From positions 47,597-111,596 of the IMG/VR virus record IMGVR_UViG_3300015371_000006: a DNA stretch of 64,000 nt. One strand, written 5' to 3'. The DNA comes from a virus. Shown here one piece after another: positions 4,751-34,601 of the stretch. The stretch's first letter is position 1, and every line of letters begins with the position of its first letter. The translations under genes were made by a program, and so were the position numbers. The notes beneath the pieces are model-generated. The model searched no databases and was not told the origin of the DNA. It was given only the letters and a program-made list of their open reading frames with translations.

Positions 4751-4756
4751 GTCGTC

Positions 4757-4762
4757 ATCGTA
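4757..4762 (-). promoter_or_regulatory. -10 box TACGAT, leaderless promoter of the left-edge giant gene
   Basis: TACGAT fits the actinobacterial TANNNT consensus and ends six bases before GTG 4750. No Shine-Dalgarno sequence precedes that GTG, so transcript start and translation start probably coincide. Confidence 0.5.
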
Positions 4763-4778
4763 ACCGCGCCCTGGGCGG

Positions 4779-4988
4779 CTACCCCGGTTGGACTTCGATC
4801 CGTAGCGGCGTGTTGCCCGGTGCGGTGACGTGGATGATCCGGCGGCGGTGCTCGGTGCGGACCTCGCTGATCTTGATATCGGGGTCGGCGACCAGCGCCT
4901 GCTCGACGCCACTGAAGCCCCGGTTCAGCCGCTCGCGCGTGTCAGGCGGCGACGAGGAGGTCTTCGTCTCGGGCGTCGATGAGTCCAT
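4779..4988 (-). CDS. Small protein of unknown function (69 aa)
   Basis: Begins inside the preceding gene (4942-5241) and stops 28 bases before the GTG of the giant gene. The C-terminal half (IKISEVRTEHRRRIIHVTAPG) looks like alternating beta strands; the Ser/Thr/Pro-rich first 15 residues may be untranslated if a later start is used. No family recognised. Confidence 0.55.
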   Translation of the reverse strand: MDSSTPETKTSSSPPDTRERLNRGFSGVEQALVADPDIKISEVRTEHRRRIIHVTAPGNTPLRIEVQPG

Positions 4989-12471: not shown

Positions 12472-15400
12472 TCACGAGTCCAGCTCACGGACCCGGTTCA
12501 CGCCGCTGACCAGGAACGCCTTGCCGGTCGCGGGCCGCCAGATCAGAACCAGGCCCCCTCCGGCGGCCTGCACGTAGATGTATTCGTTGCCGCCCTTGTC
12601 GCGGAAGCCCTGGCCCGGCATCAGATCCTTGACGTGGGGGTGCTTGTATTTCCCGCCGCTTCCCCATGCGGATTTGTAGCCCAGCAGATCGGTCATCGGG
12701 ACGCCGCTGATGCTCCCGTGCTCGGCGAGGATCTTCGCCAGCAGCGCCTTCGCGTCGCCGCCCGTGTTCGTCTCGGCCTCCACGTCGGGGCTGCTCAGCT
12801 CGGTCGCAGCCTTCGGCTGCACGTCGTCGAGCTTGGTCTGGTCGCTGACCACCTGCAGCAGCCCGCTCTGCAGATCCTTGACGATCACCTGGTTGCCCTG
12901 GCTCGGGCCGGGCGGGGTCTTGAAGGCGACCACCTGGAAGGGATGCCCGCTCGCGTTCTCGAACTCGTACTCGGGTTCCATGTCGTAGAGGTAGCCCCCG
13001 GTGAACGGCGTCGTCTCGGTTTCGGCCTCCGGGTCGGCGGCGGGCGGTTGCTCGGGGAGGTCCGCCAGCGGCGTGCCGGGGCTCACCTTGGTCATCCCGG
13101 CGGCGTCGGGGCCGGAAGGCCCCACGACCTTCTCGCCGTTCGCCAGCTCGGCCACGACGATCCACGGCTCGCCATCCGGGCCGGTGAAGGTTTCGCCGCC
13201 CTGCAGCTGGTCGATGTTCGTCGGCTCGGGGTCGGGCGGTGTCGGCGCGACGCTGATCTTCGCGGGCTTCAGCGCCCCGACCACTCCGGTGATCGTTGAC
13301 TCGGTGCCGTTCTGCAGGCTGACCGCCTTCTCGTGGTCCGACTTCATGAACTTGTAGCCGCCGTATTCGTAGGTGCTGCCGATGGGCAGGTCGTCGACGG
13401 CGAGGCCTTCGGTGTTGTCGTAGGTCGGCGGGTCGTGGTCGGGGATCGTCTGCGTCGGCGTCGGCGTCTGTGGCGGCAGCGCCATGCCGCCGGGCGGGCC
13501 GGGCACAAAGCCCTCTTCGAACTTCAGCGTCTCGCCGGGGTCGCCGCTACTCCCGAAGCTCTTCTTCAGCAGCGTCACCTCGACCTGTCCGTTGACCGGG
13601 CCGCCCTGCACCTCGTAGATCGAGCCGGAGGCCATCTTGATCTGCGTCCCTGCGGGCATCTCGCCCAGCGTGGCGGTGGTCGGCTGGAAGGCCGCTTCGG
13701 GGAACGGCGCGGCCAGGCCCTCGGGCGGCTCCACGCTGATCGGCGTGCCCCCTCCCGCCGGGGTCGCCAGCGCCTTCACGTCCTTGGCGTAAACCATCTT
13801 CAGGCCGCCCGTGGTGTAGACGCCCTTGATCCCGGTGCCCGCCACCTGGTTGTCGGTGATCTTGACCGTCTGCCCGTCCGTCAGCTCCACGACGTCGCCG
13901 TTCGCCAGCGAGTTGAAGAGTTCCTCCTGGTCGGCGGTTGCGATTCCCGCCTCGGGCGCTGGCCAGGTGATGACGGTCGGGTTGTCGACCGTCGTGTCCA
14001 TCGGCACGGTGCCCCCGGTCGCCACGTTCTCCAGGTCGACGAAGCCGTCGAAGTTGTTCGTCACCTTGTAGCGGACGTCCTGGTAGATGACGGTCTGCCC
14101 CACCGGGATGTCGGCGAGCTTCACCTGCGCGCCGGTGGCCCCCGGAGGTGCCGCAACAGCGCCCGGCTCGTCTACGTCGGTCATCTGCGGCCCCGGCTGC
14201 GTGACCACCTTCTCCAGGCTGACCGTGTACTCCTTCTGGCCCTTCTGGATCAGCAGCGCGTCCTTGCCCGACGGCGTGGTCGCTGATCCGACCACGGTGC
14301 CGGTCCAGGTCTTGCCGTCGGCGCGCTTCATCTCGACCGTCTGCCCCAGCTCGTAGCCGTGGTGCTTGATCGGCTCAGCGGGTGCCATGTCCAGGCCCTG
14401 TCCCGGCGGCGGCGGGGCGTCCATCGTCTCCTCGGGCAGCTCGCGCACGCGCAGCTTTCCGCTCACGGTGAAGTTCGTCTGCCCGTCGGAGATGATCGGC
14501 TCGTCGCCCGCGACCTGCAGCTTGAACAGCTTTCCGGTCTTGTCGCGGAACACGGTCCCGGCGGGCAGGTTCTTGATCCGCTCGTGCTTGTAGGCCCCGC
14601 CCGGCCCGTGGGAGGACTTGTAGGGCACCAGCTGGTCGCCGATGTCGAACAGCGCGTCCTCGGCCTGCTCGGACTGGTTGAGGCTCGGCGACGTGGTTGC
14701 GGGCTTGAGCGCAGGGTGGCTTTCGCCGTAGGTGACGTTGTCGCTCGGGGCGGGCATCGTCGTCTTCTGCGGGTTCAGCGTCCCGTCCTCGCGGATCAGG
14801 TTGCCGGTGATCTGCTTCTCGCCCGACTCGCCGACCGACACGCCGGTCACCTGCCACACCTTGCCGTCGTGGATGAACGTGTCGAAGTTCTCCAGCTGCT
14901 CGGCTTGGACCGTGTCGCCCGGCTTCAGCTCGGAGTGCGGGGTCAGCGACTTCGGCGGCCCGGACTTCTTGACCTGGCTCTCGTTGGTCGGGCTCTCGTG
15001 GTCGTGCCCCACGCCACCGTCTGCCGACTCCAGGGACTTGACCTTCTTCTTCAGCAGCGCCTTGCCGGTCTCCCCGGTGTCCAGGTTCGTGAAGTAGACC
15101 CAGCTCTCGTCCTTGCTGTCCACGCGGTAGGGGCGGATGCGCGAGCCCCGGCCGCCGTGGAACAGGTCGCCGTCGGCGAGGTCGCCCATCTGCGTGGACT
15201 TGCCGATCTTCCACGCCTTCGGGTTGAACAGGCCCTGCAGCGCGTCGTTGTCAGGGTCGATCTGCACGACCTTCGCGCCGGGCTTGGCCTCCTTGATCGA
15301 GACGATGCCGTTCTTCTTGACCGAGGTGACGACGTGCTTGGCCCCGTTGTAGGCCAGCGTCATCCCCTTCTCCGGCGGCTGCTTCAGCTTGAAGTAGCCC

Positions 15401-17343
15401 TCGATTTCGACCAGCTGCACGGCCTTGTAGTCGCCGTTGATGGTGCCGGTCAGGCCGCTGTTCAGGTCTTGGATCTGCGTCAGGCCCAGCGTGGGCGTGT
15501 CCTTGATCTCATACGGCGTCCCGTTGACCTTGAACTTGTCGCCGATCTGCATCTTGGCGATGGGCTTCGCGTCGTCGGTGCCGAATTGCCAGGCGGCCGG
15601 GTCGAAGCCGCTCTCCTCGACCTTGGTCGGCGGCACGTTGCCCAGCAGCTTGTAGTTCGGGTAGCCCTCTTGGAAGGCCATCTCCTCGCCGTTGTATTTC
15701 AGCCCGCCCTCGCCGTCGGGCACGATCTTGTGGATGCGCAGCCCGCTGGGGCTGGCAGGGTCGGCGTTGACGTAGTAGAGGGTGCCCTGCAGGCCCATCA
15801 GGAAGTCACCTGCGCCCGCGTGCGACTCGGCTGCCTCCAGCGCCTCGGGGTTGCCGTTGGGGTCGAGGTTGTCGAATGGCAGCCCCAGCTTCCCCAGCTC
15901 CTCGGGTGACCAGCCGGACTTGATCTCGGGCAGCTTGTCGGCGTACTCCTCCAGCGCGGTGATCGCAGCGGGCGGTGGCGGCAGGTGCGCCGAGCCCTTC
16001 ATCTTGATCTCGGCTGCGACCGGCGGCACGGGCAGCGGCTCGCCGCCTCGGACAGCCGACAGGAACATGCGGATCGTGTCGCCGCCTCGGGGCTGCTTGG
16101 TCATCTTCCCCAGCCACTGGCGGTAGCCGGACGGCACCTCGTCGTTGTGGTAGCTGATCGCCTGGTCCGGGTCCAGCACCATCTGGTAGGGGATCGCCAC
16201 CTCCTGCTCGCCGTGGCAGCTCCCCTGCGCGTTCTTCATCGGCCCCGAGACGTAGGTCGCCATGACGATGTGGCGCATGCTGACCGCCGTCGCCACGCCG
16301 GTCTGCTTCTTGCCGATGGCCTCGCTGTTGAAGCTGCAGCTCAGGCCGCTGAACACCCTCGCCTTGCCGCTGATGAACTTCTTCCACCACGAGGTCGGCT
16401 TCGCCGGGCTCAGGTAGCCGGACTTGTGGATGATCGTCAGGTCGGGGCTGCGGGTGCGGTTGTAGAGATCCCAGGCGTAGGCGTCGCGGATCAGGCCCTG
16501 CAGCTCCATCGCCTGCTCGCGCTTGGCCCGCGCGGACTCCAGCGTCTTCGGGTTCTTCTCGTGCATGTTGATGATCCCGGCGAGGCTCAGCGACATGCCC
16601 GACGAGCTGCCGTACTGCGAGCTGAAGCCGCCGCTGACGAGCTGTCCGATCTCGGCGTCGTAGCCCTGGTACGCCTTCGTGATCAGCTGGCTGGCCTTGA
16701 GCTTGCCGTACTCGCCGTAGCGCTTCTGCAGGTCGGTGTAGTGGAGCTGCTCGGCACGACCGAAGGCGGCCCACTCCTCGGCGGTCAGCGCGCTGTTGGG
16801 CGGGATCGGGATCGAGGGGTCGTGCGTCTTCGGGTCGACGTGCGGGTTGACGGCCGTGACCGTGGACTTCGGGCCGCCCGCGTGCTCGCCCTTGCCGCCG
16901 ATGACCGCCACGGGCTTAGCCCGCTTCGCGCCGGTCAGCTCCTGGGCGGGGCCGCCGGTCGTGGTCGGGTCCAGCACCACGGTCTTCGCCACCTCGCCGC
17001 CGGTCTTGTGGGCGATGATCTGCCCCTGCCCGTCGGGCCCCGCGACGATGTTGGCGATCTCGTAGGTGTCGCCCTTGAAGTCGAAGGTCTGCCCCACGCG
17101 CATGAACTTGCCGCCCAGGCCGCCCGGCGTCCCGGCGGGCCAGCGCGGGTGCAGGTGCTCCTCGACCGACGTCCACGGTCCGGCGGCCGCCTCCTCCAGG
17201 TTCTCGCCCTCGACGTCGGGCTCTCGGGGCTCCGGCCCACGCTCCCTGCGCCCACCCTGCTCGGCCGCTGCTCGGATCAGCCCCAGCGGGTCGTCGGAGT
17301 TCGCGTCGGGGGGCGTCGGCAGCGGAACGAGGACGGTCGTCAC
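12472..17343 (-). CDS. Giant modular protein: ART-like region plus about a dozen beta-barrel modules
   Basis: 1623 aa from GTG 17343. An N-terminal module (FMRVGQTFDFKGDTYEI, residues about 80-125) precedes an ADP-ribosyltransferase-like region around 290-390: strand LTIIHKSGYLS, SGLSCSF, and an E-x-E turn GEQEVAIP. Then about a dozen roughly 50-80 residue units follow the pattern L-x-x-G-(D/T/Q)-x-(V/F)...G-x-x-(Y/F)-x-V, for example MQIGDKFKVNGTPYEI, IPVGQTVIYQDVRYKV and LPIGSTYEYGGYKF. Two units are closer kin: YKSSHGPGGAYKH (near 907) and YKSAWGSGGKYKH (near 1555), each leading to an FRDK strand and a V-x-x-RVREL end. Likely an injected or virion-decorating protein; ART activity is unproven because the usual first-strand Arg is not evident. 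Confidence 0.85.
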   Translation of the reverse strand: MTTVLVPLPTPPDANSDDPLGLIRAAAEQGGRRERGPEPREPDVEGENLEEAAAGPWTSVEEHLHPRWPAGTPGGLGGKFMRVGQTFDFKGDTYEIANIVAGPDGQGQIIAHKTGGEVAKTVVLDPTTTGGPAQELTGAKRAKPVAVIGGKGEHAGGPKSTVTAVNPHVDPKTHDPSIPIPPNSALTAEEWAAFGRAEQLHYTDLQKRYGEYGKLKASQLITKAYQGYDAEIGQLVSGGFSSQYGSSSGMSLSLAGIINMHEKNPKTLESARAKREQAMELQGLIRDAYAWDLYNRTRSPDLTIIHKSGYLSPAKPTSWWKKFISGKARVFSGLSCSFNSEAIGKKQTGVATAVSMRHIVMATYVSGPMKNAQGSCHGEQEVAIPYQMVLDPDQAISYHNDEVPSGYRQWLGKMTKQPRGGDTIRMFLSAVRGGEPLPVPPVAAEIKMKGSAHLPPPPAAITALEEYADKLPEIKSGWSPEELGKLGLPFDNLDPNGNPEALEAAESHAGAGDFLMGLQGTLYYVNADPASPSGLRIHKIVPDGEGGLKYNGEEMAFQEGYPNYKLLGNVPPTKVEESGFDPAAWQFGTDDAKPIAKMQIGDKFKVNGTPYEIKDTPTLGLTQIQDLNSGLTGTINGDYKAVQLVEIEGYFKLKQPPEKGMTLAYNGAKHVVTSVKKNGIVSIKEAKPGAKVVQIDPDNDALQGLFNPKAWKIGKSTQMGDLADGDLFHGGRGSRIRPYRVDSKDESWVYFTNLDTGETGKALLKKKVKSLESADGGVGHDHESPTNESQVKKSGPPKSLTPHSELKPGDTVQAEQLENFDTFIHDGKVWQVTGVSVGESGEKQITGNLIREDGTLNPQKTTMPAPSDNVTYGESHPALKPATTSPSLNQSEQAEDALFDIGDQLVPYKSSHGPGGAYKHERIKNLPAGTVFRDKTGKLFKLQVAGDEPIISDGQTNFTVSGKLRVRELPEETMDAPPPPGQGLDMAPAEPIKHHGYELGQTVEMKRADGKTWTGTVVGSATTPSGKDALLIQKGQKEYTVSLEKVVTQPGPQMTDVDEPGAVAAPPGATGAQVKLADIPVGQTVIYQDVRYKVTNNFDGFVDLENVATGGTVPMDTTVDNPTVITWPAPEAGIATADQEELFNSLANGDVVELTDGQTVKITDNQVAGTGIKGVYTTGGLKMVYAKDVKALATPAGGGTPISVEPPEGLAAPFPEAAFQPTTATLGEMPAGTQIKMASGSIYEVQGGPVNGQVEVTLLKKSFGSSGDPGETLKFEEGFVPGPPGGMALPPQTPTPTQTIPDHDPPTYDNTEGLAVDDLPIGSTYEYGGYKFMKSDHEKAVSLQNGTESTITGVVGALKPAKISVAPTPPDPEPTNIDQLQGGETFTGPDGEPWIVVAELANGEKVVGPSGPDAAGMTKVSPGTPLADLPEQPPAADPEAETETTPFTGGYLYDMEPEYEFENASGHPFQVVAFKTPPGPSQGNQVIVKDLQSGLLQVVSDQTKLDDVQPKAATELSSPDVEAETNTGGDAKALLAKILAEHGSISGVPMTDLLGYKSAWGSGGKYKHPHVKDLMPGQGFRDKGGNEYIYVQAAGGGLVLIWRPATGKAFLVSGVNRVRELDS

Positions 17344-17380
17344 CCGTCCATTGTGAACCCCGCGCAAGCGGGAGGGCGAT

Positions 17381-17545
17381 TCAGACCACGGAGACGATGC
17401 CCTGGTGGCGGCGTTGCCACCAGCGCGCGCCCGCGCGCGTGAGCGCGAGGTGCGCGATCTCCTCGCCATAGGCGGTCGGCATCACCACCCGCCAGCGCCA
17501 GGGTCTCGGGTCGCCGCAGCAGGTGCGCTCGACCCGGCCCTTCAC
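17381..17545 (-). CDS. Small protein (54 aa)
   Basis: GTG 17545 forms a GTGA overlap with the preceding stop. Contains RTCCGDPRPWRWRV and ends in a helix YGEEIAHLALTRAGARWWQRR. Basic, Trp-rich; function unknown. Confidence 0.65.
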   Translation of the reverse strand: MKGRVERTCCGDPRPWRWRVVMPTAYGEEIAHLALTRAGARWWQRRHQGIVSVV

Positions 17546-17907
17546 TTGACGGCTCTCCAGCCCTTCGGCTTCTCGCCGCCCTTCGGCGCGTTGGCCTGGG
17601 CGTTTCGCAGCTTCCGGTTCCAGCTGGTGTGCTTGTGGCCGCCCCACTCGGTGTAGCGGTCCGCCTCGCTGCGCTTGAAGGGCAGTCCGCTGAAGGCCCG
17701 GCGGAACTTCGCGTTGCCGTCCATCTGCTTCGGCTGGGGGATGTCGCCCAGCGCATGCGACTGCGCCTTACGCGAGCCCCGGCGCAGGTGCCCGACGTTG
17801 CGCGACTCCATCTTCTCCTCCACAGAGCGAGTGCCCTGGCGACGGTTGGCACGGCGCTGTTGGCGGTGGGTCAGGCCCCGGCCGCCCCGCTTGGCCCGGA
17901 TGCTCAC
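17542..17907 (-). CDS. Basic unknown protein (121 aa)
   Basis: Start GTG 17907 has GGAGG eight bases upstream; the frame is open further but lacks coding character. Highly basic (GRGLTHRQQRRANRRQG), with ALGDIPQPKQMDGNAKFRR in the middle. Could bind nucleic acid. Promoter box lies in the stop codon of the MuF giant. Confidence 0.65.
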   Translation of the reverse strand: MSIRAKRGGRGLTHRQQRRANRRQGTRSVEEKMESRNVGHLRRGSRKAQSHALGDIPQPKQMDGNAKFRRAFSGLPFKRSEADRYTEWGGHKHTSWNRKLRNAQANAPKGGEKPKGWRAVK

Positions 17908-17911
17908 TTCG

Positions 17912-17948
17912 CGTACCTCCTCGGTCGGGTGTTGACCGGGGCAGCCTA
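17912..17948 (-). promoter_or_regulatory. TAGGCT promoter overlapping the stop of the MuF giant
   Basis: TAGGCT at 17943-17948 contains the upstream gene's TAG stop; the leader ends in CCGAGGAGG before GTG 17907. This allows downstream genes to be read separately from the giant gene. Confidence 0.5.
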
Positions 17949-20900
17949 ACGGGGCTTGACGACGGCGTCGACCACGGTCGCCCCGTCGATGAGCTTGCTG
18001 CCGGTGATGCGAATCGACGTGCGCCGGGGCAGCACCACGCGGCCGGGCGTCGGATCGGTGACGGTGTCGAGCGTCGAGGGCATCAGCGCGTGCGCTCCGG
18101 TCGGGACCGTGAGCCGCAGGGTGACCACGCCGGGCGTCGGCGCGTACTGCGTCTCGGCGTTGAGGTAGCTCTTCTCGGTCATCCACTTCCCGGCCAGCTC
18201 GCCTGCGTTGTCGGCGTTGATCTTGCTGTCGGCGGGCAGCGGGACGTAGGCGTAGAAGTCCTCGTCGACTCGGGTCACCCTGTCGCCCAGCAGGGCGTCC
18301 AGCTGCGCCACGGTGCCCTGCGTCTCGGCGTCGGCGGCCGCGCGCTTGGCCCCGGAGCGCAGGTGGGCGTCCACCACGTCGTGGCCCTGGCCCAGGTAGT
18401 GCTCCATCGCTGCGTCCTCCTCGGGGTAGGTCTCCAGCGATGCGTCGCGCGCGCTGAATTCGTCGAGCACCTCCTCGCCGCTCAGCGGCTCGGGGATCTC
18501 CTCCTCGCCTCGGCTGTAGCGCCCCAACCAGGCGACTCGGGCCTTGAGGTTCTCGCGGACGCGCTCGCGCATCTCCTCATCGTCGAACGGGGCCGCGTCC
18601 ACCAGCGCGTCGATGCGCTCGGGGGTCAGACGCAGCTCGGCGTCCTTGGCGGCGGCCCGCATCCCCTCCTCGGTGATCGCCATCCGCGTCCACGCCTGCC
18701 CGCCAGGCTTGTTCATCGTCCACAGCTCGGTCGGCACCGGCCCGAACGGCTTCGGCCCGCCCATCGCCCGGTACTCCAGGGTGCCGCCCTGGTCGAGTCG
18801 GATCGGGGTGTCGCCGTTCCACAGCACGTTGTCCTGCGCCAGGCCGACCACGTCCCAGTTGCCCAGCAGCGCGTCGGCGACGAAGCCGTCGGCCAGCGTT
18901 TCATCGGCGTGTTGCCACTGGCGCTCCTCGCCGTCCACGAGCGGGTAGGTCAGCGCGCGGGTCTTGCCGAACTTCGGCACGTTCACCTCGGTGTAGCCCG
19001 CGTTCGGGACGGTGATCCCCAGCTCGCGGTAGATCGAGTTCGCCAGCAGCTCGGTTGCCACGCGGTCGCGGTTGCCCTTGTACGTCTTCACCAGCCAGCG
19101 GCGGCCCTCGGCGTCCTCGGCCATCCGCGCCCCGTTCGACCCTCCTGCGGGCTTGACGTCCTTGAGCTTCGTGGCGGTGTAGTCGGGGATGCCCTGCACC
19201 GGCTCGGGCGGGGCTTCCATCTCGGAGCGCTCGACCTCTTCGGTGCGCTCGGGCTTGCCGCCGTCCCAGCTCGCCTGCATCTTCGCCAGGAACGCCTTCA
19301 TCCCCGGCAGCTCAGGTGGGCTGGCCTGGCCTACTCCTCCGGCTTCTCCTCCGGCTTCTCCTCCGGCTCCGGGTCCGACTCGTAGCGCAGCGTCTCCCCC
19401 TCCAGGTACTCCGCTGCGTCCGGCGGGAGATCCGGGGCTGGCGGCGGCTGCTCCTTCGGGTCCATCGAGGCCCATCCTACCCTGCGCCAGGAAGCCGTCC
19501 ATCTTCTCGGCGTCGAGAATCTTCAGCTCGCCGCCCACATCCTTGTCGGCGATCAGCTTCGCGGGCTCGCCGCGCGGCACGTCGGTGTCCCACACCCGCA
19601 GCCGCAGCCAGGGGAGTTCGTCGTCGTACTCGGTGAAGCGCTGGGGCACGCTGCGGTAGGCGTTGTCGACGATGTGGTCGGGCACGGTGCGGCCGCTGCG
19701 CTCGGCGCGCTCGGCCACGCGGACCTTGCCCTTTTCGTGGGGGAGGTGGGCGACGTCGACCTCCACGTCGTAGCCGTCGGCGTGCGCCTGCTCCAGCTTC
19801 TCGCGGAAGCGCCCCGCGCCGGAGTTGCCGACGCCGTCGATCAGCACGTCGAGGCCCCGGTTGAAGGCTCGCGCGCGCAGCGTCCGGGCGATGATCGAGG
19901 ACTCCTCATGCACGCCCGCGCCGCTGTAGGGGTCGCGCGCTTCGATCATCGCCTGGTACTCGGGCAGCTTCTCCTTGATCGCGTCGGGGTTGACCTCGAC
20001 CATGCCGGTGGCCTCGGCGCTCAGCATCGAGGACTTGCCCGAGCCCGGTCCGCCTGCGGTGAACGCCGCGCGCGGCTTGCGGCCCGAGGGTGGTTCGTGG
20101 CCTTCCAAGAAGCTGTTGATGATCTCCTCGTGCAGCGCCCGGCGCTCGTCGGCGTAGACCCGGCCGGTCGGGGTCATGCGCGACCACTTCGCCTCGGTGT
20201 CGACGGCCTCGCCCAGCACCTCATTGGCCGTCGGCCCCTTCTCCACCTGCAGCCGATCCTCGGGGCGCTCGGCGGGGCTGGCCTGGCCCATCATCACCGA
20301 GCTGAGCGCATCCCAGGCGTTGGCTGCCAGCTGCTCCTCTGAGGCCGCGTCGGCGTCACGGATCGCCTCCAGGGCGCGCACCTCCTCTTCGTCTCGCAGC
20401 GTCGTGATCGCCGGTTCGACCTCCTCGCGGCTCAGCCCGTCAACCGAACCCACGTCGCGCTTGACCGCGTAGGTGCGCGTGCCGTCGCGGTCGCGGGTGA
20501 CGCTTACCTCGCTGCCGTCGCTCAGGGTGATCGTCGATGCGTCGGGCTGACCGGGGTAGAAGTCCAGCTCGTCGAGGTTCCTGCGGTCGCGGTCGCTCAG
20601 CGGCCTGCGGCCGAAGCCGGTCGGGCGGGGGCGGTCCAGTGCGCCCCGCCAGGCGGCGAGCGCAGGCATCGGCCCCGCTGCTCCGAGGGTCTGCACGCGC
20701 TGGGCATAGGGATTCCACGCCACATGGCGCGACAGGTGCAGGCCGGGGCTGGCCTGCCCGCCTTGCGCCTCCAGGGATTCGCGGTCGAGCAGCAGCTCGT
20801 TCTCGCCCGCCAGCTTGCCCAGCCACAGCGCCTTGGTCCCGGCGGGCACCGTGACCTCCTGAACGTCGCCGAATCGCTCGGCATCAGCCTTTCGCGTGCT

Positions 20901-23900
20901 GGTGCTCACGAACGGCCCGCGCAGCTTGCCGTCGTCGGCCCCGCCTCGGTAGACCGTGACCGCCTCGGGGAGCGCCCTCATCGCCCTGCGCAGCATCTTG
21001 ACCTGCGGCCCCAGCTTGTACTCGCGGTCGAGCGAGGGGTCGTAGAGGATCTCGTCGGGATCGTCCGACTCTTGGAACGGCGTGCTGTCAACGATGTACA
21101 GCTCAGCCGCGTTCTGTTGGCGCGGTCCCAGCTCGGGCGCATTCGCGTCGAGCATCTCCTCAGCCGCCTTACCCTTCAGTCCGGGGCTGGCCTGGCCAGT
21201 CGCCTTACTGATTGCGGCCTTCACCAGCGAGTCGTCGAGCGCCCGGCGCTCCTCCGGCGTGCGGTCGGGGTCGTCGTCGGCGTGCTGATCCATCGCGTCG
21301 GCGATCAGCGCCTCCAGGTCGGCGGTGTCCTCGCCGGGCTCGACCCAGCCGTTGAGCATCGACTTCGTCAGCTCGTCCTGCACGGCCTGGCGCTGCTCAG
21401 GGGTCAGCTGGTCGAGGCCGGGGCTGGCCTGGCCTGCCATCGCGCGCAGGCGCGGGTCGTCTGACTGGGACAGGTACTCCTGCTTGCGGGCCTGCAGCGA
21501 GTCGGCGATCTCGCTGCCCACCGGCTCGCCGTCGCGGGTGTAGCGGGCCTGGTGGCCGTAGTACGCCTGCGACCAGTTGTAGCCGTCGGTAAGCCGGTAG
21601 CCGTGGTCGATGACCTTGCCCTTGTTCTGCGCCTCCAGCTCGCGCATCAGCTGGGTGGCGATGCCCCGGCGCTGGAACTCGGGGATGACCTCGATCTTGT
21701 CGATGCCGATGTCGGCGTTGGCCTCGCGCGCTTTCTTGCCGATGGCGGGCCGGTAGCGGCTGTAGGTCAGCTTGCCCACCTCCCTGCCGTCTACCTCGGC
21801 CACCAGGCCGTCGAAGTATTCGGTGTCGCCTCGCTTGCGCGGCTTGATCTCGGCGGGGCTCAGCTGGCCCGACTTGACCGCGTCGTCTACCTGGGGGTTC
21901 CAGGCGTCCAGGGTTGCGGGCGGACTCGCCTGCCCCAGCGCGAGCTTCGTGTCCGGCATCAGGCCCTTGCCTGCGGGCTGGGCGACACCGGAGCGCACGG
22001 CGATGCCGTAGCTCTCGGCGTTGCTCATCCGGTTCGTGGTCGCGTAGCGCTTCCGTGAGCCGTCGGGGCGTTCGATCAGCACGCTGTCGCCGCGCTTGCC
22101 TCGGGTGATCGTCGAGCCATCGGCGGCCTGCAGGCTGTCGCCTCGCTGCAGCGCTCGGACCTTGCGGATCAGCGCCCGGCGCGGGTCGGAGTAGTTGTGC
22201 GGGTCGAAGCTGCCGGGCTCGATGTCGAGCGCCTCGGCGTTCGGCTCGGCGATCCCCATCTCCTTCATCGTCCGCTTGACGAAGACGCGGTCCTTCTCCT
22301 TCTCGGCTTCGGGCAGGTCGGCGTAGGGCTTCAGCAGCTCCGGCTGGTCGGCCTTCGCCCAGCTCTGGTTGCGGTCGATCCAGGCGTCGTGCACCTCGGA
22401 GGCCAGCCGCTCCATGTCGAGCGCACCCTCCTCATCGCGCATCCGGGTGATCGCGTCGTAGGCCGACGCCGCGCCGTCGCGGTTCTCGGCTTGGAACTTC
22501 TCGGGCAGCTCGTCGTAGGTCATGTCGGCGATGTCGATGGTCCCGCCCCCATAGGGCTTGGGCCGGGGCTCGTAGTTGCGGTCCTTGCGCCACTGTTCGT
22601 GGGCCTGTGCCGCGACCCTCTCTACGACCTTGTCTCGCTGCATGGCAGCGCCTGTGAGCGGTTGTTCGGGCGCGCCCTCTGCACCCTGCCCCTCCGGGGC
22701 GTCGCCGCCTCTGGCGCGCTTACGGCTCTCCGCTCCAGGGCGGGCTCGGGACACGTCGAGGACGCTCGACTCGCGCAGCAGCACCATCTCGCCGTCCTCG
22801 GTGAGCGCCTCGGCCTTCCAGCCCAGCGCGTCGTCGTCCTCGACCTTGCGCAGCTCGGCCACGGTGATGTCGCCGTTGTTCTGCTTGATCCGCACCACAT
22901 CGCCCTCCGCGACCGGGCCGGTGATGTTGTTGCCCTTCAGGTTGCGCCGGGGCGGATCGGCCAGGAACTCCACGTCGTCGGGGTCGGGGTAGCGGGTGAC
23001 GGTGTCCACGATCTGGCCGTTGTGGTCGCGCAGCTTGACCTCGACCTCGGCGTACCAGCGCCCGTCCTCGCCCACCATCGCGTCGGTGACCACGCCCTCC
23101 CAGGGCTCCTTGCGCCCCGTCACGCGCACGCGCGCGCCCGCGCGGATGCGCATGCGGTGGTCGGTGTAGTTGGGCTGGCGCAGCACCTCCGCTCCGGCGG
23201 CCCCCGGCCCGGCGAAGTGCTCGACCGTCCTCGCCATCAGGTCGCGCGCTCGCGCCTCGCCCTTCTCGGGGGTGACGCCCTGCGCGCCTGCCAGCAGCCC
23301 GCCGAGGATCTCGAAACGCTTCTCGGGGTCGGCGCTGAAGGCCAGGTTGTGCAGCAGCTCGCGGCGGTTCTCCAGCGGGACGTGGGCTTCGTCGAGCAGG
23401 AGCCCGAGCGCTGCGCGCTGGGGCAGGTAGGTGCCCTGGGCTCGGATGTCGTCGGGCTTGCGGCCCAGCCAGCGCAGGACGTCGTGCTGTCCGTTGCGCT
23501 TCAGCAACTCGACCGCCCACTCGTGAGCCATCTCCTCGGTCAGCGCCTCGTCGAGGCTGAAGTGCTCCGGCTGGGCGAAGGTCTCGGGGTTGATCGGGTT
23601 GACGCCGTGGGAGGCCTCGTGCATCGCCGTGCGGTAGGCGTTGTAGACGCCCGCTGCGGTGTCGTCGTCGAGCCGCCGCTTCTCCACGCGGGCGGCGTGG
23701 GCGGCCTGCAGGTGCACCTGGGCGGCCCGGCCGACTTGCACCTCGCCGTCCCAGCTGCGAAAGCCGCCCGTGTCCTCGTCGGCTTCGTTGATGCGGATCG
23801 ACTTCAGCACCACCTGGCGGCCGTGCGTGTCGCCGATTTGCTGTGCAAGCCCGGCCACTCCGGCGGCAAGACCGGAGAAGTCCTCTGGTGCGCCAGCCTT

Positions 23901-25109
23901 CTGGGCCGCCATATTGCCTGCAAAGGGCACAGGAACTGGAGAAGACGTCGGGCCCCCGGCTCCATCCGGCACATCCGGCACATCCGGCGTCCCAGCAGGC
24001 ATCCCGCCGGGTGCCGCCTGGCCCCCGACCTGCGTGGTGACCCTTGCTGGGATCGGGTCCGACCCGCGCTGCGCGAGCTTCGGCGCGTCCGTGCCGTGCA
24101 GGAACCGGAGCACGTCGTTGAGGCTGATCCTCGGCGCAAAACCCCCGCGTCTTGGGCGGAAACGGCCGCCCCACACCGTGCCCTTGGCGAACCGCTCGTC
24201 CCAGGCGACCTCCTCCATGTCGAGCACGAGGTCTGCGGGTGGGACATCGGTGCCCTCGGGCTGGGACATACCGCCGGACATATCCCCAGTCAGAGACACG
24301 AGAAAGTCACCATTTGCAGGGGTTTCGCCGTTCGAGCTGAGGGACATCTCCAGGGACATCTCGGTGACACGTTCGGCCAGTAGGGCCTCTTGCAGCAGGC
24401 CGTATCGCTCAGCGATCTGCTGGGCGCGCCGGTCGGCCGCCTCGGTGTCGGGAGCCTCGGCTCCCATCAGCCCCATGTCGTATGCCTCGTCGTGCGTGAG
24501 CAGCTCGCAGCGGCAGCCCGTGTGCGTCGGCGGGTTGATCCGGTCGAGCACGCTCCAGGGCCACCAGCCGACCGTCGCCATCGCCAGGCAGTCCGGGGTG
24601 TGCTCCTTGACCGCTTCGCTGAGGTGCCAGAACGCGCCCTCGGGGCTCAGCCTGCGGACCATGCCCCTGCGCGCGGTCGCCTGCACGCGAGCGGCCGCCG
24701 CCTCGTGGTGTGCCTCGGTGAACCGCCGCTCGCGCTCCAGCACCCGCTTGACCGCCGCCTCGGGTTCGTCGCGCTGCAGGGCCGCCGGGATGTCGCGGCG
24801 CATCCGCTCCTCCATGCGCCGGTAGAACTCGACGTCGCGCTCCTGCTCGACCCGCGCGGCCTCGGCCAGCTCGGCATCGCTCACGTCGGCGCGTGCGAAC
24901 TCCGGTCGGATCGCCTTGACGATCCAGTCCGCGCCCTTGCTGCGCCGCCTCAGCGCCGCGACGGCCGCCCCGATGGCGGCCCCGGCCTGTCCCGAGGCCA
25001 CCTCGCCCCCAGCAGCGTCGTCGTCGCCGGAGGCTGCGATGACGCCCCCCGCTGCGGCCGCCGCCAGGATCGCCTCGGTGTTGTCGTCCTGCTTCGCGCG
25101 CGTCGGCAT
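17946..25109 (-). CDS. MuF-type polyvalent protein: MuF, zincin, GNAT, ART, zeta, HipA-like kinase, ART-like
   Basis: 2387 aa. Residues 1-215 are the Mu F-like head morphogenesis domain ending WWPW...PPTHTGCRC. Around 500 is HEASH (zincin H-E-x-x-H) with helix ALTEEMAHEWA. Two SH3-like segments follow. Around 1100-1190 is a GNAT acetyltransferase (QRRGIATQLM). Around 1385-1445 is an ADP-ribosyltransferase with complete R-S-E: VYRGG, FVSTSTR, ENELLL. Around 1650-1790 is a zeta-toxin-like P-loop kinase (GGPGSGKSS, NPDAIKEKLPEY). Around 1990-2190 is a HipA/PI3K-like kinase (WLVKTYKG, DNVLW, IRLDQGG). The last 120 residues look ART-like (GRVVLPRRTSIRITG) without the catalytic Glu. GQxSP motifs lie between these domains. 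The architecture fits phage polyvalent proteins injected with DNA. A TAGACT box lies eight bases before ATG 25109. Confidence 0.9.
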   Translation of the reverse strand: MPTRAKQDDNTEAILAAAAAGGVIAASGDDDAAGGEVASGQAGAAIGAAVAALRRRSKGADWIVKAIRPEFARADVSDAELAEAARVEQERDVEFYRRMEERMRRDIPAALQRDEPEAAVKRVLERERRFTEAHHEAAAARVQATARRGMVRRLSPEGAFWHLSEAVKEHTPDCLAMATVGWWPWSVLDRINPPTHTGCRCELLTHDEAYDMGLMGAEAPDTEAADRRAQQIAERYGLLQEALLAERVTEMSLEMSLSSNGETPANGDFLVSLTGDMSGGMSQPEGTDVPPADLVLDMEEVAWDERFAKGTVWGGRFRPRRGGFAPRISLNDVLRFLHGTDAPKLAQRGSDPIPARVTTQVGGQAAPGGMPAGTPDVPDVPDGAGGPTSSPVPVPFAGNMAAQKAGAPEDFSGLAAGVAGLAQQIGDTHGRQVVLKSIRINEADEDTGGFRSWDGEVQVGRAAQVHLQAAHAARVEKRRLDDDTAAGVYNAYRTAMHEASHGVNPINPETFAQPEHFSLDEALTEEMAHEWAVELLKRNGQHDVLRWLGRKPDDIRAQGTYLPQRAALGLLLDEAHVPLENRRELLHNLAFSADPEKRFEILGGLLAGAQGVTPEKGEARARDLMARTVEHFAGPGAAGAEVLRQPNYTDHRMRIRAGARVRVTGRKEPWEGVVTDAMVGEDGRWYAEVEVKLRDHNGQIVDTVTRYPDPDDVEFLADPPRRNLKGNNITGPVAEGDVVRIKQNNGDITVAELRKVEDDDALGWKAEALTEDGEMVLLRESSVLDVSRARPGAESRKRARGGDAPEGQGAEGAPEQPLTGAAMQRDKVVERVAAQAHEQWRKDRNYEPRPKPYGGGTIDIADMTYDELPEKFQAENRDGAASAYDAITRMRDEEGALDMERLASEVHDAWIDRNQSWAKADQPELLKPYADLPEAEKEKDRVFVKRTMKEMGIAEPNAEALDIEPGSFDPHNYSDPRRALIRKVRALQRGDSLQAADGSTITRGKRGDSVLIERPDGSRKRYATTNRMSNAESYGIAVRSGVAQPAGKGLMPDTKLALGQASPPATLDAWNPQVDDAVKSGQLSPAEIKPRKRGDTEYFDGLVAEVDGREVGKLTYSRYRPAIGKKAREANADIGIDKIEVIPEFQRRGIATQLMRELEAQNKGKVIDHGYRLTDGYNWSQAYYGHQARYTRDGEPVGSEIADSLQARKQEYLSQSDDPRLRAMAGQASPGLDQLTPEQRQAVQDELTKSMLNGWVEPGEDTADLEALIADAMDQHADDDPDRTPEERRALDDSLVKAAISKATGQASPGLKGKAAEEMLDANAPELGPRQQNAAELYIVDSTPFQESDDPDEILYDPSLDREYKLGPQVKMLRRAMRALPEAVTVYRGGADDGKLRGPFVSTSTRKADAERFGDVQEVTVPAGTKALWLGKLAGENELLLDRESLEAQGGQASPGLHLSRHVAWNPYAQRVQTLGAAGPMPALAAWRGALDRPRPTGFGRRPLSDRDRRNLDELDFYPGQPDASTITLSDGSEVSVTRDRDGTRTYAVKRDVGSVDGLSREEVEPAITTLRDEEEVRALEAIRDADAASEEQLAANAWDALSSVMMGQASPAERPEDRLQVEKGPTANEVLGEAVDTEAKWSRMTPTGRVYADERRALHEEIINSFLEGHEPPSGRKPRAAFTAGGPGSGKSSMLSAEATGMVEVNPDAIKEKLPEYQAMIEARDPYSGAGVHEESSIIARTLRARAFNRGLDVLIDGVGNSGAGRFREKLEQAHADGYDVEVDVAHLPHEKGKVRVAERAERSGRTVPDHIVDNAYRSVPQRFTEYDDELPWLRLRVWDTDVPRGEPAKLIADKDVGGELKILDAEKMDGFLAQGRMGLDGPEGAAAASPGSPAGRSGVPGGGDAALRVGPGAGGEAGGEAGGVGQASPPELPGMKAFLAKMQASWDGGKPERTEEVERSEMEAPPEPVQGIPDYTATKLKDVKPAGGSNGARMAEDAEGRRWLVKTYKGNRDRVATELLANSIYRELGITVPNAGYTEVNVPKFGKTRALTYPLVDGEERQWQHADETLADGFVADALLGNWDVVGLAQDNVLWNGDTPIRLDQGGTLEYRAMGGPKPFGPVPTELWTMNKPGGQAWTRMAITEEGMRAAAKDAELRLTPERIDALVDAAPFDDEEMRERVRENLKARVAWLGRYSRGEEEIPEPLSGEEVLDEFSARDASLETYPEEDAAMEHYLGQGHDVVDAHLRSGAKRAAADAETQGTVAQLDALLGDRVTRVDEDFYAYVPLPADSKINADNAGELAGKWMTEKSYLNAETQYAPTPGVVTLRLTVPTGAHALMPSTLDTVTDPTPGRVVLPRRTSIRITGSKLIDGATVVDAVVKPR

Positions 25110-29975: not shown

Positions 29976-30130
29976 CGCAGCACCTTCGGCCGGGAGGTTG
30001 ACGTGCTGGCCGCCGGTTGCCGCCGCGCCGCCAGCCTCTGGCGCATGACGAGGATGAACGCCTTCTTCGCCGGGCTCTTGGGCAGCGGCTCGTCGGCTTC
30101 CCAGGACGTCCGCGACGTGTAGGTGCTCAT
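29960..30130 (-). CDS. Small basic protein coupled to portal (56 aa)
   Basis: ATG 30130 overlaps the portal stop as ATGA. Contains WEADEPLPKSPAKKAFILVM then a basic tail RQRLAARRQPAAS. Function unknown; translational coupling suggests a structural or assembly role. Confidence 0.65.
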   Translation of the reverse strand: MSTYTSRTSWEADEPLPKSPAKKAFILVMRQRLAARRQPAASTSTSRPKVLRWRQG

Positions 30131-32133
30131 TGGCCCAGCTCCCTGATCGGCTTCGTGATGTCGTCGAAGTCGTCGGCGGCCCGTTTCGCCTGCTCGCGCA
30201 CACGGCGCTGGGCCTCCTCGGTGCGCAGGCGGTCGACCATCTGCTCCTCCAGGTCCGACAGGGCCTGCTCGCGCGTGACGTAGCGGCTCTCGGTTGGCCC
30301 GTAGGGGTTGGCCTCCGGCGTCGAGGCCGCCATCGGCGCGCCGTAGGGGTTGGCCTCGCCCTGCGGGGCCCCGCCGTTGCCGTTGATGGTGATCCCTGGC
30401 GGGAGCTGCTCCTGGGGCTGTTGCTGTTGCTGCAGCGCTTCCATCGCCGGGTCGGTGTAGCCGGGCGGGAACACCTTCTCGGTGACCTCGGCCGGGTCGC
30501 TCATCTCCAGGCCCTCGCCGATGGCGATGCTGAACAGCGTCCGGGTCAGCTCGATGTTGGTCCCGTTCGGGTCGAAGGTGCGCGCCACGGTGGCGACGCT
30601 GTTCACCAGCTCGGTCATCATCCGCCGCAGCGGGCTCGGCAGGGAGAAGTCGTAGCTGAGATCGCGCTTGCGCTCGTCCTCGGGCACCTCCTCGGGGATC
30701 TCGCCGTCCTCGTCGGTCGGGTCGGGCGCGCCCAGCTCGGCCTGGGTGTCGGCCTTCGGCGGCGTCGGCACGGCGGGGGCGTCCTCGGTGCCCTCCTGCT
30801 CGCGGTCCTCCTGGCGCTCTGCCCACTCCTCGTAGCTCAGCTCCTCGGTCAGCCGCCCGGCCTCCAGGGCCTCGTGGATCACCTGGTCGCAGAACCAGCG
30901 GAACATCTGCTCGAAGACCTCTTGGCGCGATTCGACCGCCTTCAGCACGGGCAGCTCCATCGAGGTGGCCGTCGCCAGGTTCGCCGAGCCGATGTCGCCG
31001 AGGTAGTGCTGGGGGAAGTGCGTCGCGGCGCTGATCTGCGAGCGGATCATCTGCCCGTCCACGTTCGCGCCGGTCGCCCCGCTGTCCAGCTTGAAGCTCT
31101 CGTGCTCGACCTGCTCGTTCTCGGTGATGATCGAGCCGCCGCTCGGCCCAGCGACCACGGAGGTGTCGGAGTCCACGGTCCGCCCCAGCTCGCCTCGGGT
31201 GCTCAGCGCCTGGTTGGCCATCTTGCGGATCTGGTTCGGCGTGCCCTTGACCTTGCGCTTCATGATGAACGCGGCGGCTGCCTTCGCGGCATCCACGCGG
31301 GCCTCCATCAGCGAGTTGAAGGCGTTGGCCCAGCGCAGCACCCGGTGCATGGTCGGGTGCCCGAAGGCCATCTCGGAGGTCTTGTTGACGGCGACGTGGT
31401 AGACGCGGCCCTTGCCGGTCTTGTTCGCCGGGGGCTTGAGCCCGCCCTTCTCGTTGTTCCAGTGCTGGTAGTAGAGGATGCGCTGGCCGCGCTCGGGCGC
31501 GTCGTAGAGCAGCTGGGGGCCGTCCTTTTGGAAGTCCCACTTCATCTGCTTGCGGCGGCTGACGTAGTAGAGGACGCGCAGGCGGTTGTCGGGATCGCGG
31601 ACGACGTTCTCGACGCTGTCGTGCTCCAGCATCCCGAGCTTGACCTTGCCGTCGTCGCCCGTGAACTTCAGCAGGAAGATGTTGCTCTGCAGGGTGATGT
31701 CGGTCCCGAGCGCGAGCTGCGCCGGGTAGCTGGTCAGCGCCAGCTGGTTGTCCTCGTCGTCCCAGGCTTCGTCGAGGATCTCCTGCACCTTCTCGTCGCG
31801 GGCCTTCGGACGCGGGACGCCCCGGCCCAGGCAGAAGTCGTTCATCAGGTCGGTGGCCGCGCCGAGCTGCGCGTCCTGTTGCCAGGCTACCCGCGCTTGC
31901 TGCACCAGCGCCCGGCGCTTGACCGCCTGCAGATCCTGCTCGGAGCCGCCCTCGTAGTCCAGCAGGGTCCAGCCGATCAGGTCGAGCTGTTGGCGCAGCA
32001 CTCGCCGGTCCTCGACCATCGCCTCCATGACGTCGAGTTCGTCGGCGTCGACGGTCGTCTCGCCCCGGTTGCTCAGGCGCGTGCGCGCCCAGCGGTCGAG
32101 GAAGCCCTCGCGCTTCTCGTCGTCCTCAGCCAC
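30127..32133 (-). CDS. Phage portal protein
   Basis: 668 aa from GTG 32133 (GAAGG upstream). Portal features: N-terminal helices, DLMNDFCLGRG, YDV-like core NRLRVLYYVSRRKQMKW, VYHVAVNKTSEMAFGHPTMH, WANAFNSLMEARVDAAKA, the GANVDGQMIRSQISAATHFP stretch and HYLGDIGSANLATATSMELP, then a Pro/Glu-rich C-terminal region. It forms the dodecameric ring at the capsid vertex through which DNA is packaged. Lies downstream of terminase with small genes and a tRNA between. Tail Asn-Pro-Tyr-Gly repeats (EANPYGAPM, EANPYGPTE) occur near residue 600. Confidence 0.9.
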   Translation of the reverse strand: MAEDDEKREGFLDRWARTRLSNRGETTVDADELDVMEAMVEDRRVLRQQLDLIGWTLLDYEGGSEQDLQAVKRRALVQQARVAWQQDAQLGAATDLMNDFCLGRGVPRPKARDEKVQEILDEAWDDEDNQLALTSYPAQLALGTDITLQSNIFLLKFTGDDGKVKLGMLEHDSVENVVRDPDNRLRVLYYVSRRKQMKWDFQKDGPQLLYDAPERGQRILYYQHWNNEKGGLKPPANKTGKGRVYHVAVNKTSEMAFGHPTMHRVLRWANAFNSLMEARVDAAKAAAAFIMKRKVKGTPNQIRKMANQALSTRGELGRTVDSDTSVVAGPSGGSIITENEQVEHESFKLDSGATGANVDGQMIRSQISAATHFPQHYLGDIGSANLATATSMELPVLKAVESRQEVFEQMFRWFCDQVIHEALEAGRLTEELSYEEWAERQEDREQEGTEDAPAVPTPPKADTQAELGAPDPTDEDGEIPEEVPEDERKRDLSYDFSLPSPLRRMMTELVNSVATVARTFDPNGTNIELTRTLFSIAIGEGLEMSDPAEVTEKVFPPGYTDPAMEALQQQQQPQEQLPPGITINGNGGAPQGEANPYGAPMAASTPEANPYGPTESRYVTREQALSDLEEQMVDRLRTEEAQRRVREQAKRAADDFDDITKPIRELGQ

Positions 32134-32518
32134 TCTTCGCCTTCGCCTTCGACTTGGACTTGGACTTCGGCTCGGGCTCCTCGTCGCCGTCACCGTTCGT
32201 GCCCTGCTCGCCCTTGCGCGCTGCATCGCGCAGGATCGCGGCCGCCTCGCGGTAGGCCATCTGCGCCTTGTTGGAGTTCGGCATCCCCGACGTGCGGGCC
32301 AGCGCTTGGTCGAGCATGTCGGCCGAGGTCTCCAGCAGCACTGAGCGGCCGTTCGTGGCGGCGTGCTCGTCCTCTGCCTCGGCTCTGCCCTCTTCGCGGC
32401 CCCGCTCGTAGTTGCGCTTCAGTAGGTCGCGGACCTCCTTGGCGGTGTCGCGCGTGTCGCCCCCCTTGATCGCAATCCGGCGGGCATCAGCCGCCAGCCG
32501 TCGTCGGTTGTCAGCCAT
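32126..32518 (-). CDS. Charged helical protein upstream of portal (130 aa)
   Basis: Helices DTRDTAKEVRDLLKRNYERG and NKAQMAYREAAAILRDA, ending in a Lys/Ser tail (KSKSKSKAKAK). Overlaps portal by eight bases. Possibly a head-assembly partner. Confidence 0.75.
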   Translation of the reverse strand: MADNRRRLAADARRIAIKGGDTRDTAKEVRDLLKRNYERGREEGRAEAEDEHAATNGRSVLLETSADMLDQALARTSGMPNSNKAQMAYREAAAILRDAARKGEQGTNGDGDEEPEPKSKSKSKAKAKSG

Positions 32519-34435: not shown

Positions 34436-34601
34436 GCCCACATCGGGGACAGTAGGAGTTGCGCGTCCGCCCTCCGCACTCCGAGCACTCGCCTCGCAGT
34501 TCGACCGGGGCCGTCAGCTTCGGCGGCGGGGGCGGCTCCACCTTGTCCGGGGTCCAGGGTCGGTTGCGGTAGCGGCGTCGACGACGACGCCGCCCGATCA
34601 C
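34425..34601 (-). CDS. Small zinc-ribbon protein coupled to terminase (58 aa)
   Basis: GTG 34601 overlaps the terminase stop as GTGA. An Arg-rich N-terminus (IGRRRRRRRYRNRPW) and a Pro linker lead to CSECGGRTRNSYCPRCG, a textbook zinc ribbon. Could help packaging or DNA binding by the terminase; inference from coupling. Confidence 0.75.
   Translation of the reverse strand: MIGRRRRRRRYRNRPWTPDKVEPPPPPKLTAPVELRGECSECGGRTRNSYCPRCGLAF

What the first reader, a model, noticed from the sequence alone, without database searches (positions are those of the whole stretch)
17946..25109. Seven-domain MuF polyvalent protein carrying several toxin-type enzymes
Seen: MuF zinc motif, HEASH, a GNAT motif, a complete R-S-E ADP-ribosyltransferase, a P-loop zeta-like kinase, a HipA-like kinase and a degenerate ART-like tail in one 2387-residue frame. 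Known: phage polyvalent proteins combine MuF or portal-linked heads with ART, peptidase and kinase domains and are thought to be injected with DNA. Inference: this phage loads its capsid with a single multi-effector that modifies, acetylates and phosphorylates host targets early. The exact combination, especially GNAT plus ART plus zeta plus HipA-like kinase, may be undescribed.
Basis: partly seen in the sequence, partly recalled or inferred. Interest (0 to 1): 0.9.

Follow-up and report, generated by a model that had tools for sequence, protein, structure and literature searches.

The report
Phage effector polyprotein with private linker tags
An uncultured phage builds two giant virion-type proteins as strings of toxin-like and other modules divided by a short peptide tag (G-Q-x-S-P) that its relatives replace throughout with a tag of their own, which looks like a phage-specific cutting or recognition signal used to store and release many host-takeover proteins at once.

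Summary
Multi-effector MuF/ART/GNAT/zeta phage proteins are already described as 'polyvalent proteins', so the domain list alone is a new member of a known kind. The new part is what divides the modules. GQxSP occurs 7 times here (about 0.03 expected) and 12 times in a second giant, peptidoglycan-binding, protein of the same phage. Two relatives use a different tag: GMxSP in three giant proteins of G005 and MATPT in the giant of G003. Two further relatives have the same backbone with no array and no tag. The tags bracket lineage-specific inserts. They are conserved as protein, not DNA: almost every copy has its own DNA, Ser uses both codon families, and position x is free. They are 30-40 times denser in the giants than in the rest of the proteome (none elsewhere in G003). 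Best reading: a head-loaded effector polyprotein, on a fixed MuF-zincin-kinase-pseudoART backbone, whose modules are cut or recognised at a genome-specific tag by one trans-acting factor (perhaps the embedded zincin). The anatomy is shown; delivery and cleavage are inferred.

The parts
17946..25109 (-). Giant MuF-type polyvalent gene (called M0), 2387 aa
   Evidence: single open frame, ATG start; GC3 0.91 against GC2 0.48; orthologs in four IMG/VR contigs
24390..24992 (-). MuF-like head domain, residues 40-240; zinc residues H170/C174/H196/C199/C201
   Evidence: invariant in 5 orthologs; AF2 blocks mostly pLDDT 70-93; Phage_Mu_F hit in only 1 of 15 aligned relatives
23898..24389 (-). Disordered linker, residues 241-404, with GQAAP at 363-367 (24009-24023); G005 has GMKSP and G003 has MSTPT in the corresponding linker
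   Evidence: pLDDT <50 at 241-330 and 339-403; alignment A4
23250..23897 (-). Zincin-like metallopeptidase, residues 405-620, HEASH 497-501 and EALTEE 521-526
   Evidence: AF2 block pLDDT about 72-98, helix-3 strands-HExxH helix-E helix; HExxH-type residues invariant in 5 orthologs; no PDB fold match
22221..22712 (-). RyR-containing insertion found only in this phage (residues 800-963; RyR 899-951)
   Evidence: Pfam RyR E=6.6e-5; absent from the four aligned orthologs
21936..22220 (-). Conserved backbone block next to the array (residues 964-1058)
   Evidence: 39-65% identical to the orthologs over 965-1042
19317..21935 (-). Cassette array, residues 1059-1931, GQASP at both ends
   Evidence: absent in G006/G007 orthologs, different contents in G005/G003
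21921..21935 (-). GQASP tag 1 (1059-1063)
21855..21869 (-). GQLSP tag 2 (1081-1085)
21435..21854 (-). GNAT acetyltransferase cassette (1086-1225)
   Evidence: Pfam Acetyltransf_1 1.7e-5; RRGIAT at 1147
21420..21434 (-). GQASP tag 3 (1226-1230)
21198..21419 (-). 74-aa cassette of unknown function (1231-1304)
   Evidence: no library match
21183..21197 (-). GQASP tag 4 (1305-1309)
20760..21182 (-). R-S-E ADP-ribosyltransferase cassette (1310-1450)
   Evidence: Pfam ADPrib_exo_Tox 1.9e-5; motif positions
20745..20759 (-). GQASP tag 5 (1451-1455)
20289..20744 (-). 152-aa cassette of unknown function (1456-1607)
   Evidence: no library match
20274..20288 (-). GQASP tag 6 (1608-1612)
19332..20273 (-). 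Zeta-toxin-like P-loop kinase cassette (1613-1926), Walker A GGPGSGKSS 1686-1694
   Evidence: Pfam Zeta_toxin 1.2e-22; phrog_16619 minor head protein 1e-16
19317..19331 (-). GQASP tag 7 (1927-1931)
18510..19154 (-). HipA/CtkA-like kinase (1986-2200), backbone
   Evidence: K2008, NWD 2084-2086, DN 2093-2094 and DxGG 2106-2109 conserved in 52 sequences; HipA_C/HipA_2 hits; at least 562 IMG/VR relatives
17949..18287 (-). Pseudo-ADP-ribosyltransferase tail (2275-2387), backbone
   Evidence: ART fold; R-S-E lost in all five orthologs (sequences)
1..4912 (-). Second giant gene (S0; 2561 aa, continues beyond the window to record position 44823): PG-binding N-terminus, 12 GQxSP tags; seven lie in the window (1868-1882, 1565-1579, 1340-1354, 1073-1087, 1058-1072, 515-529, 245-259)
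12472..17469 (-). 1665-aa virion-region gene (T0) just downstream; no tag here, but its ortholog in G005 has tag-bracketed N-terminal cassettes
30127..32226 (-). Portal gene
   Evidence: phrog_10963 E=1.9e-28
34598..36322 (-). Terminase large subunit
   Evidence: phrog_675 E=2.4e-86; 54-57% relatives in IMG/VR

Best explanation
This is a virion-delivered effector polyprotein. A fixed backbone (MuF-like head anchor, zincin, a small conserved block, HipA-like kinase, pseudo-ART tail) would place it in the procapsid next to the portal. An exchangeable cassette array, here GNAT, a 74-aa unknown, ART, a 152-aa unknown and zeta kinase, is inserted at one site and bracketed by the tag G-Q-x-S-P. A second giant (PG-binding S0) carries a separate array with the same tag. 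The tag is read at the protein level by one trans-acting factor of the phage. Most likely a protease, perhaps the embedded zincin, separates the modules in the procapsid or after ejection, so that many small effectors travel as two polypeptides and act separately early in infection. Shown: anatomy, array insertion and exchange, protein-level conservation of the tag, its sharing between non-homologous giants, and its genome-wide replacement in relatives. Inferred: head packaging and injection, that the recogniser is a protease, and which one.
For: Tag count 7 and 12 against 0.025 and 0.04 expected; spaced-motif scores 15.3 and 22.7 (G005 S5 45, G003 M3 20.5, G005 M5 12.8) against a maximum of 11.4 in 63 other polyvalent giants. 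Core tag density 4.2/1000 aa in the giants against 0.11 elsewhere in G000, 4.7 against 0.12 in G005, 3.2 against 0 in G003. Relatives G005 and G003 have the same backbone but tags GMxSP and MATPT; G005 shares its tag across three different giants. Protein-level selection: all 12 S0, 10 M5 and 9 M3 copies have different DNA, Ser is coded by AGY and by TCN, position x is A/R/H/W/Q/Y/L, and one-off neighbours of the tag in M0 and S0 are at chance. Tags bracket lineage-specific inserts: arrays absent from G006/G007 M and S orthologs, N-terminal cassettes of G005 T, C-terminal cassettes of G005 S. One cassette is 66% identical in G005 and G003, in different array slots, and each copy is flanked by its own genome's tag. 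The MuF/zincin junction is a disordered linker holding the genome-specific tag in G005 and G003 and GQAAP here. Precedent: the SPN3US prohead protease cuts 14 sites in nine head proteins after A-X-E (PMC10052503), phiKZ after SxE (PMC5694885), and P1 DarA and DdrB are processed (PMC12810830, PMC5512222).
Against: No cleavage data exist; the phage is known only from a metagenomic contig. The zincin is also present in tag-less relatives G006/G007, though as HExxxH instead of HExxH, and its model has no PDB fold match. Only three tag-bearing genomes were found, all related. S0 and T0 show no zincin motif in the family searches, so cutting there would have to happen in trans. The tags could be binding or flexible-spacer motifs rather than cut sites.
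Confidence: 0.55

Rival explanations
1. The tags are protein-level recognition motifs without cleavage: each copy binds a partner (scaffold, portal, capsid interior or a chaperone) and keeps a long multidomain chain packed or threadable during ejection.
For: Conserved in protein with a free middle position; repeated about every 50-150 residues in S0 and G005 S5; shared by several virion giants of one genome; N4 virion RNA polymerase is a large polyvalent protein packaged uncut (PMC5512222).
Against: A packing motif should also lie within the backbone domains and in tag-less relatives; instead it sits at module borders and disordered linkers and is missing where no array is present.
Confidence: 0.22
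2. The tags are recombination seams: a short repeat that helps cassettes be gained, lost and shuffled, with no role in the protein.
For: Arrays differ in content and number between relatives; GGCATGGCATCGCCC occurs 7 times in G005 S5, showing some recent copying.
Against: DNA is different in nearly every copy of S0, M5 and M3, Ser switches codon family, and x is free while G/Q/S/P are fixed; that pattern needs protein-level selection.
Confidence: 0.13
3. One uncut multi-effector enzyme with inert flexible linkers; the tag is an arbitrary linker copied during array growth.
For: Other polyvalent proteins with ART and kinase domains work or travel as one chain (PMC5512222); most of the 63 comparison giants have no tag.
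Against: An arbitrary linker should drift; instead S0 and M0 show near-misses only at chance level and all copies in three genes of G005 share the changed residue M.
Confidence: 0.1

Closest known systems
Polyvalent proteins of phages and conjugative elements (Iyer et al. 2017, PMC5512222)
   Same: Large virion-region protein mixing MuF, zincin, ART, GNAT, zeta kinase and other effector domains; embedded zincin proposed as processor; analogy with RNA-virus polyproteins already drawn there.
   Different: No boundary motif is described there ('linker' does not occur in the text). Here a genome-specific tag marks module borders in two or three separate giants and changes in concert between relatives; RyR, and HipA by name, are not mentioned in that paper.
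Giant-phage prohead-protease substrates (SPN3US gp245 A-X-E; phiKZ SxE; PMC10052503, PMC5694885)
   Same: One short motif with a free middle residue recurs in several head/ejection proteins of one phage and differs between phages.
   Different: Those motifs mostly remove N-terminal propeptides and also occur in capsid and portal; here the tag separates effector modules and is absent from capsid, portal and protease-scaffold.
P1 DarA/DdrB/DarB injected antirestriction proteins
   Same: Large internal head proteins, some processed, ejected with DNA.
   Different: Separate genes rather than arrays of cassettes with repeated tags.
Cyanophage PSS2 minor head protein (phrog_16619)
   Same: Minor head protein with a related zeta-like domain (29% over 226 aa).
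   Different: No GQxSP and no comparable tag.
Actinomycetia phage DSL-LC01 3289-aa protein; Gordonia phages Phendrix gp66, Mareelih gp77 and Sixama gp73
   Same: Portal-adjacent polyvalent proteins with the same HipA-like kinase; DSL also shares a piece of an S0 module (43% over 70 aa).
   Different: No tag array; different module sets.

Membership tests
Polyvalent proteins | Several domains of disparate biochemical activity in one chain | tested here: met
   zeta, GNAT, ART and RyR in Pfam; HipA-like kinase and ART-fold tail
Polyvalent proteins | Encoded among virion/packaging genes | tested here: met
   terminase, portal, protease-scaffold, capsid, sheath and tape measure in the same gene order
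Polyvalent proteins | Transferred into the host with the DNA | not testable with these tools
   no virion proteomics for this uncultured phage
MuF (Phage_Mu_F) | Match to the MuF profile | tested here: inconclusive
   no hit in this protein; 1 of 15 aligned relatives hits at 8e-4
MuF (Phage_Mu_F) | C-terminal His/Cys zinc signature | tested here: met
   H170, C174, H196, C199, C201 invariant in 5 orthologs
Zincin-like MPTase | three strands, HExxH helix, then Glu helix | tested here: met
   AF2 secondary structure with block pLDDT about 72-98 and motif positions
Zincin-like MPTase | Fold match to a solved zincin | tested here: not met
   no significant PDB match for the two-domain model; a low-pTM query with a long disordered linker
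Zeta toxin kinase | Zeta_toxin profile and Walker A | tested here: met
   E=1.2e-22; GGPGSGKSS 1686-1694
R-S-E ADP-ribosyltransferase (cassette 1310-1450) | R, STS and ExE residues | tested here: met
   YRG, FVSTS, ENE
ADP-ribosyltransferase (tail 2275-2387) | ART fold | tested here: met
   Foldseek E about 1e-8, prob 1.0 to C3/C2-I/VIP2
ADP-ribosyltransferase (tail 2275-2387) | Catalytic R-S-E residues | tested here: not met
   lost in all five orthologs (sequences)
HipA-like kinase | Profile relation to HipA | tested here: met
   HipA_C in 7 and HipA_2 in 5 of 52 aligned sequences, best 1.4e-5; not detected in the query itself
Processed viral polyprotein | Recurrent site at module borders | tested here: met
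Processed viral polyprotein | Site is cleaved by a cognate protease | not testable with these tools
   needs biochemistry
Prohead-protease substrate set | Same site in capsid, portal or protease-scaffold | tested here: not met
   no Q-x-S-P or M-x-S-P in those genes

The most novel reading that the evidence does not exclude
A DNA phage makes its ejected effectors as concatenated polyproteins on two or three fixed virion backbones, cut by one phage-encoded protease at a private pentapeptide. The site specificity drifts between related phages, and every site in every giant gene changes with it, so foreign cassettes must adopt the resident tag.
Probability: 0.45. Interest if true: 0.82.

Novelty: new variant of a known kind. 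Interest (0 to 1): 0.64.

Why it matters
Polyvalent proteins have been proposed to be cut apart since 2017, but no cleavage signal was given in that proposal. A tag that can be read in raw sequence gives a concrete cut-site prediction at about 20 positions in this phage and about 40 in a relative. It gives natural specificity variants (GQxSP, GMxSP, MATPT) to match to a protease, and a way to split giant phage proteins into single effectors, many of them unknown 50-150-residue modules that may act on host defences or metabolism.

Tried and rejected
Single-sequence IMG/VR scans with M0 and with the capsid protein found nothing; the terminase scan opened the family. Scan of genome contigs with the MuF-zincin alignment: no relative. 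tblastn of T0 against phages: no match. Rejected: DNA-level recombination repeat as the whole story (Ser codon families, free x, distinct DNA). Rejected: internal start sites; GMASP and MATP contain ATG but GQxSP does not, and x varies. Rejected: a general prohead-protease site, because capsid, portal and protease-scaffold lack it. The single GQASP in the 1389-aa tape measure lies in a Gly/Ala-rich stretch and is treated as probable chance. Foldseek of the MuF-zincin model gave no significant match. Three reference or region errors cost calls (43, 50, 78). S0 cassettes have no Pfam match beyond the N-terminal PG-binding region. A search for a candidate protease gene present only in tag-bearing genomes found none; 343-aa gene 53 is shared only with G005 among the four relatives, but nothing marks it as a protease.

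Full report
WHAT IS THERE. The window is positions 47597-111596 of a 111,596-base IMG/VR virus record. The finding is a minus-strand gene, ATG at 25109, 2387 aa, with codon-position GC typical of a real gene. In transcription order it follows terminase and portal. It is followed by a 1665-aa gene (T0), a 2561-aa gene (S0, partly beyond the window), the protease-scaffold, capsid, contractile sheath and tape measure. The record is therefore a myovirus of a lineage remote from isolated phages: its terminase is at most about 29% identical to phage records but 54-57% to five IMG/VR contigs.

DOMAINS. Pfam supports zeta kinase, GNAT, ART and a RyR domain. The C-terminal 456 residues were modelled with 52 natural relatives (mean pLDDT 88.9). 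The tail matches ART toxins by fold but has lost R, S and E in every ortholog. The preceding domain is HipA-like by Pfam hits among its relatives, with CtkA as the weak best PDB sequence hit; at least 562 IMG/VR loci encode relatives. The N-terminal 620 residues model as a helical MuF-like domain, a disordered linker (241-403) and a confident zincin-like domain with HEASH and EALTEE in consecutive helices. That is the topology described for polyvalent MPTases by Iyer et al. (PMC5512222), although no PDB match was found. MuF itself is supported by its zinc signature and position more than by profile.

BACKBONE AND ARRAY. Four orthologs were found: G005 (2659 aa), G003 (2839 aa), G006 (1399 aa) and G007 (1281 aa). 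All share MuF, zincin, the block at 964-1058, kinase and pseudo-ART tail. The residues between 1059 and 1931 (GNAT, ART, zeta and two unknown modules) are replaced by other modules in G005 and G003 (ART-like modules, a PI3/4-kinase-like module, unknowns) and are absent in G006 and G007, where the flanking blocks lie about 50 residues apart or less. The RyR insertion is unique to this phage. The second giant behaves the same way: conserved N-terminal (PG-binding) and C-terminal parts, and an array of about 980 residues in S0 and about 2250 in G005 that is missing in G006 and G007.

THE TAG. Array modules here are separated by GQxSP, at both ends and between modules, 7 times in M0 and 12 times in S0, against 0.025 and 0.04 in shuffled sequences. 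In G005 the tag is GMxSP (first G relaxed), in all three giants M, S and T. In G003 it is MATPT. Core-tag density is 3-5 per 1000 residues in the giants against about 0.1 or 0 elsewhere. Of 63 other polyvalent giants scored in the same way, none reaches the score of M0, S0, S5, M3 or M5. The tag is a protein feature: nearly every copy is different DNA, serine is coded from both codon families, the middle residue is free (A, R, H, W, Q, Y, L), and near-misses of the tag occur only at chance frequency in M0 and S0. One cassette, 66% identical over 110 residues, occurs in G005 and G003 in different slots, each time flanked by the local tag. The junction of MuF and zincin, outside the array, carries the local tag too: GMKSP in G005, MSTPT in G003, and GQAAP here in a linker predicted to be disordered. 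So the tag follows the genome, not the cassette.

HOW IT MOST LIKELY WORKS. Shown: the anatomy above. Inferred from established knowledge of MuF proteins, P1 Dar proteins and T4 Alt: the backbone is loaded into the head near the portal and enters the host with DNA. Inferred from the tag pattern: one trans-acting reader recognises all copies in all giants of a genome. A protease is the simplest such reader, by analogy with prohead proteases whose sites (A-X-E in SPN3US, SxE in phiKZ) also have a free middle residue, recur in several head proteins and differ between phages (PMC10052503, PMC5694885). The embedded zincin is the better candidate than the head protease because capsid, portal and protease-scaffold lack the tag, and because the tag-bearing orthologs have HExxH while the two tag-less ones have HExxxH; five sequences are too few to lean on this. 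Released modules (ART, GNAT, zeta kinase, HipA-like kinase, small unknowns) would then modify host targets early. Activity of each is untested.

NOVELTY. The domain set is an ordinary, if long, polyvalent protein. The genome-specific, concertedly changing boundary tag shared by several giant virion genes is not mentioned in the papers read here and is what deserves attention. I rate it a new variant of a known kind, because cutting is not shown.

Noticed in passing
window 12472-17469 (-): T0 and its orthologs carry conserved H-x-S / SGLSxSF / G-E-x-E motifs reminiscent of an ART catalytic set; Pfam has no match. In L033 a T-like protein appears fused to the same HipA-like kinase.
   Followed up: partly
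L143:1140-5444 (G006 T ortholog): Its N-terminus (61-161) is a 2H phosphoesterase (2_5_RNA_ligase2, E=3.4e-12) where G005 has tag-bracketed cassettes and this phage has none: the T N-terminus is a third cassette slot.
   Followed up: partly
L031:6908-11107: A NUDIX domain (E=2.5e-10) is inserted inside the kinase domain of the G006 ortholog.
   Followed up: no
L113:62-8581 (G003 giant): Array of at least four mutually similar ART-like cassettes in tandem, each separated by MATPT.
   Followed up: partly
L110:10543-18522 (G005 giant), residues 1871-2209: A cassette with a PI3/PI4-kinase-like match (E=4.3e-5), so this phage would carry two different kinases.
   Followed up: no
window 8005-9036 (-): 343-aa gene 64% identical in G005, not found in G003 (a 35-kb fragment), G006 or G007; function unknown.
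   Followed up: no
window 22257-22415 (-): RyR domain in a virion-region polyvalent protein, inserted in this phage only.
   Followed up: partly
G000 record 17002-21171 (outside window): Tape-measure-like protein has one GQASP in a Gly/Ala-rich stretch; probably chance.
   Followed up: partly
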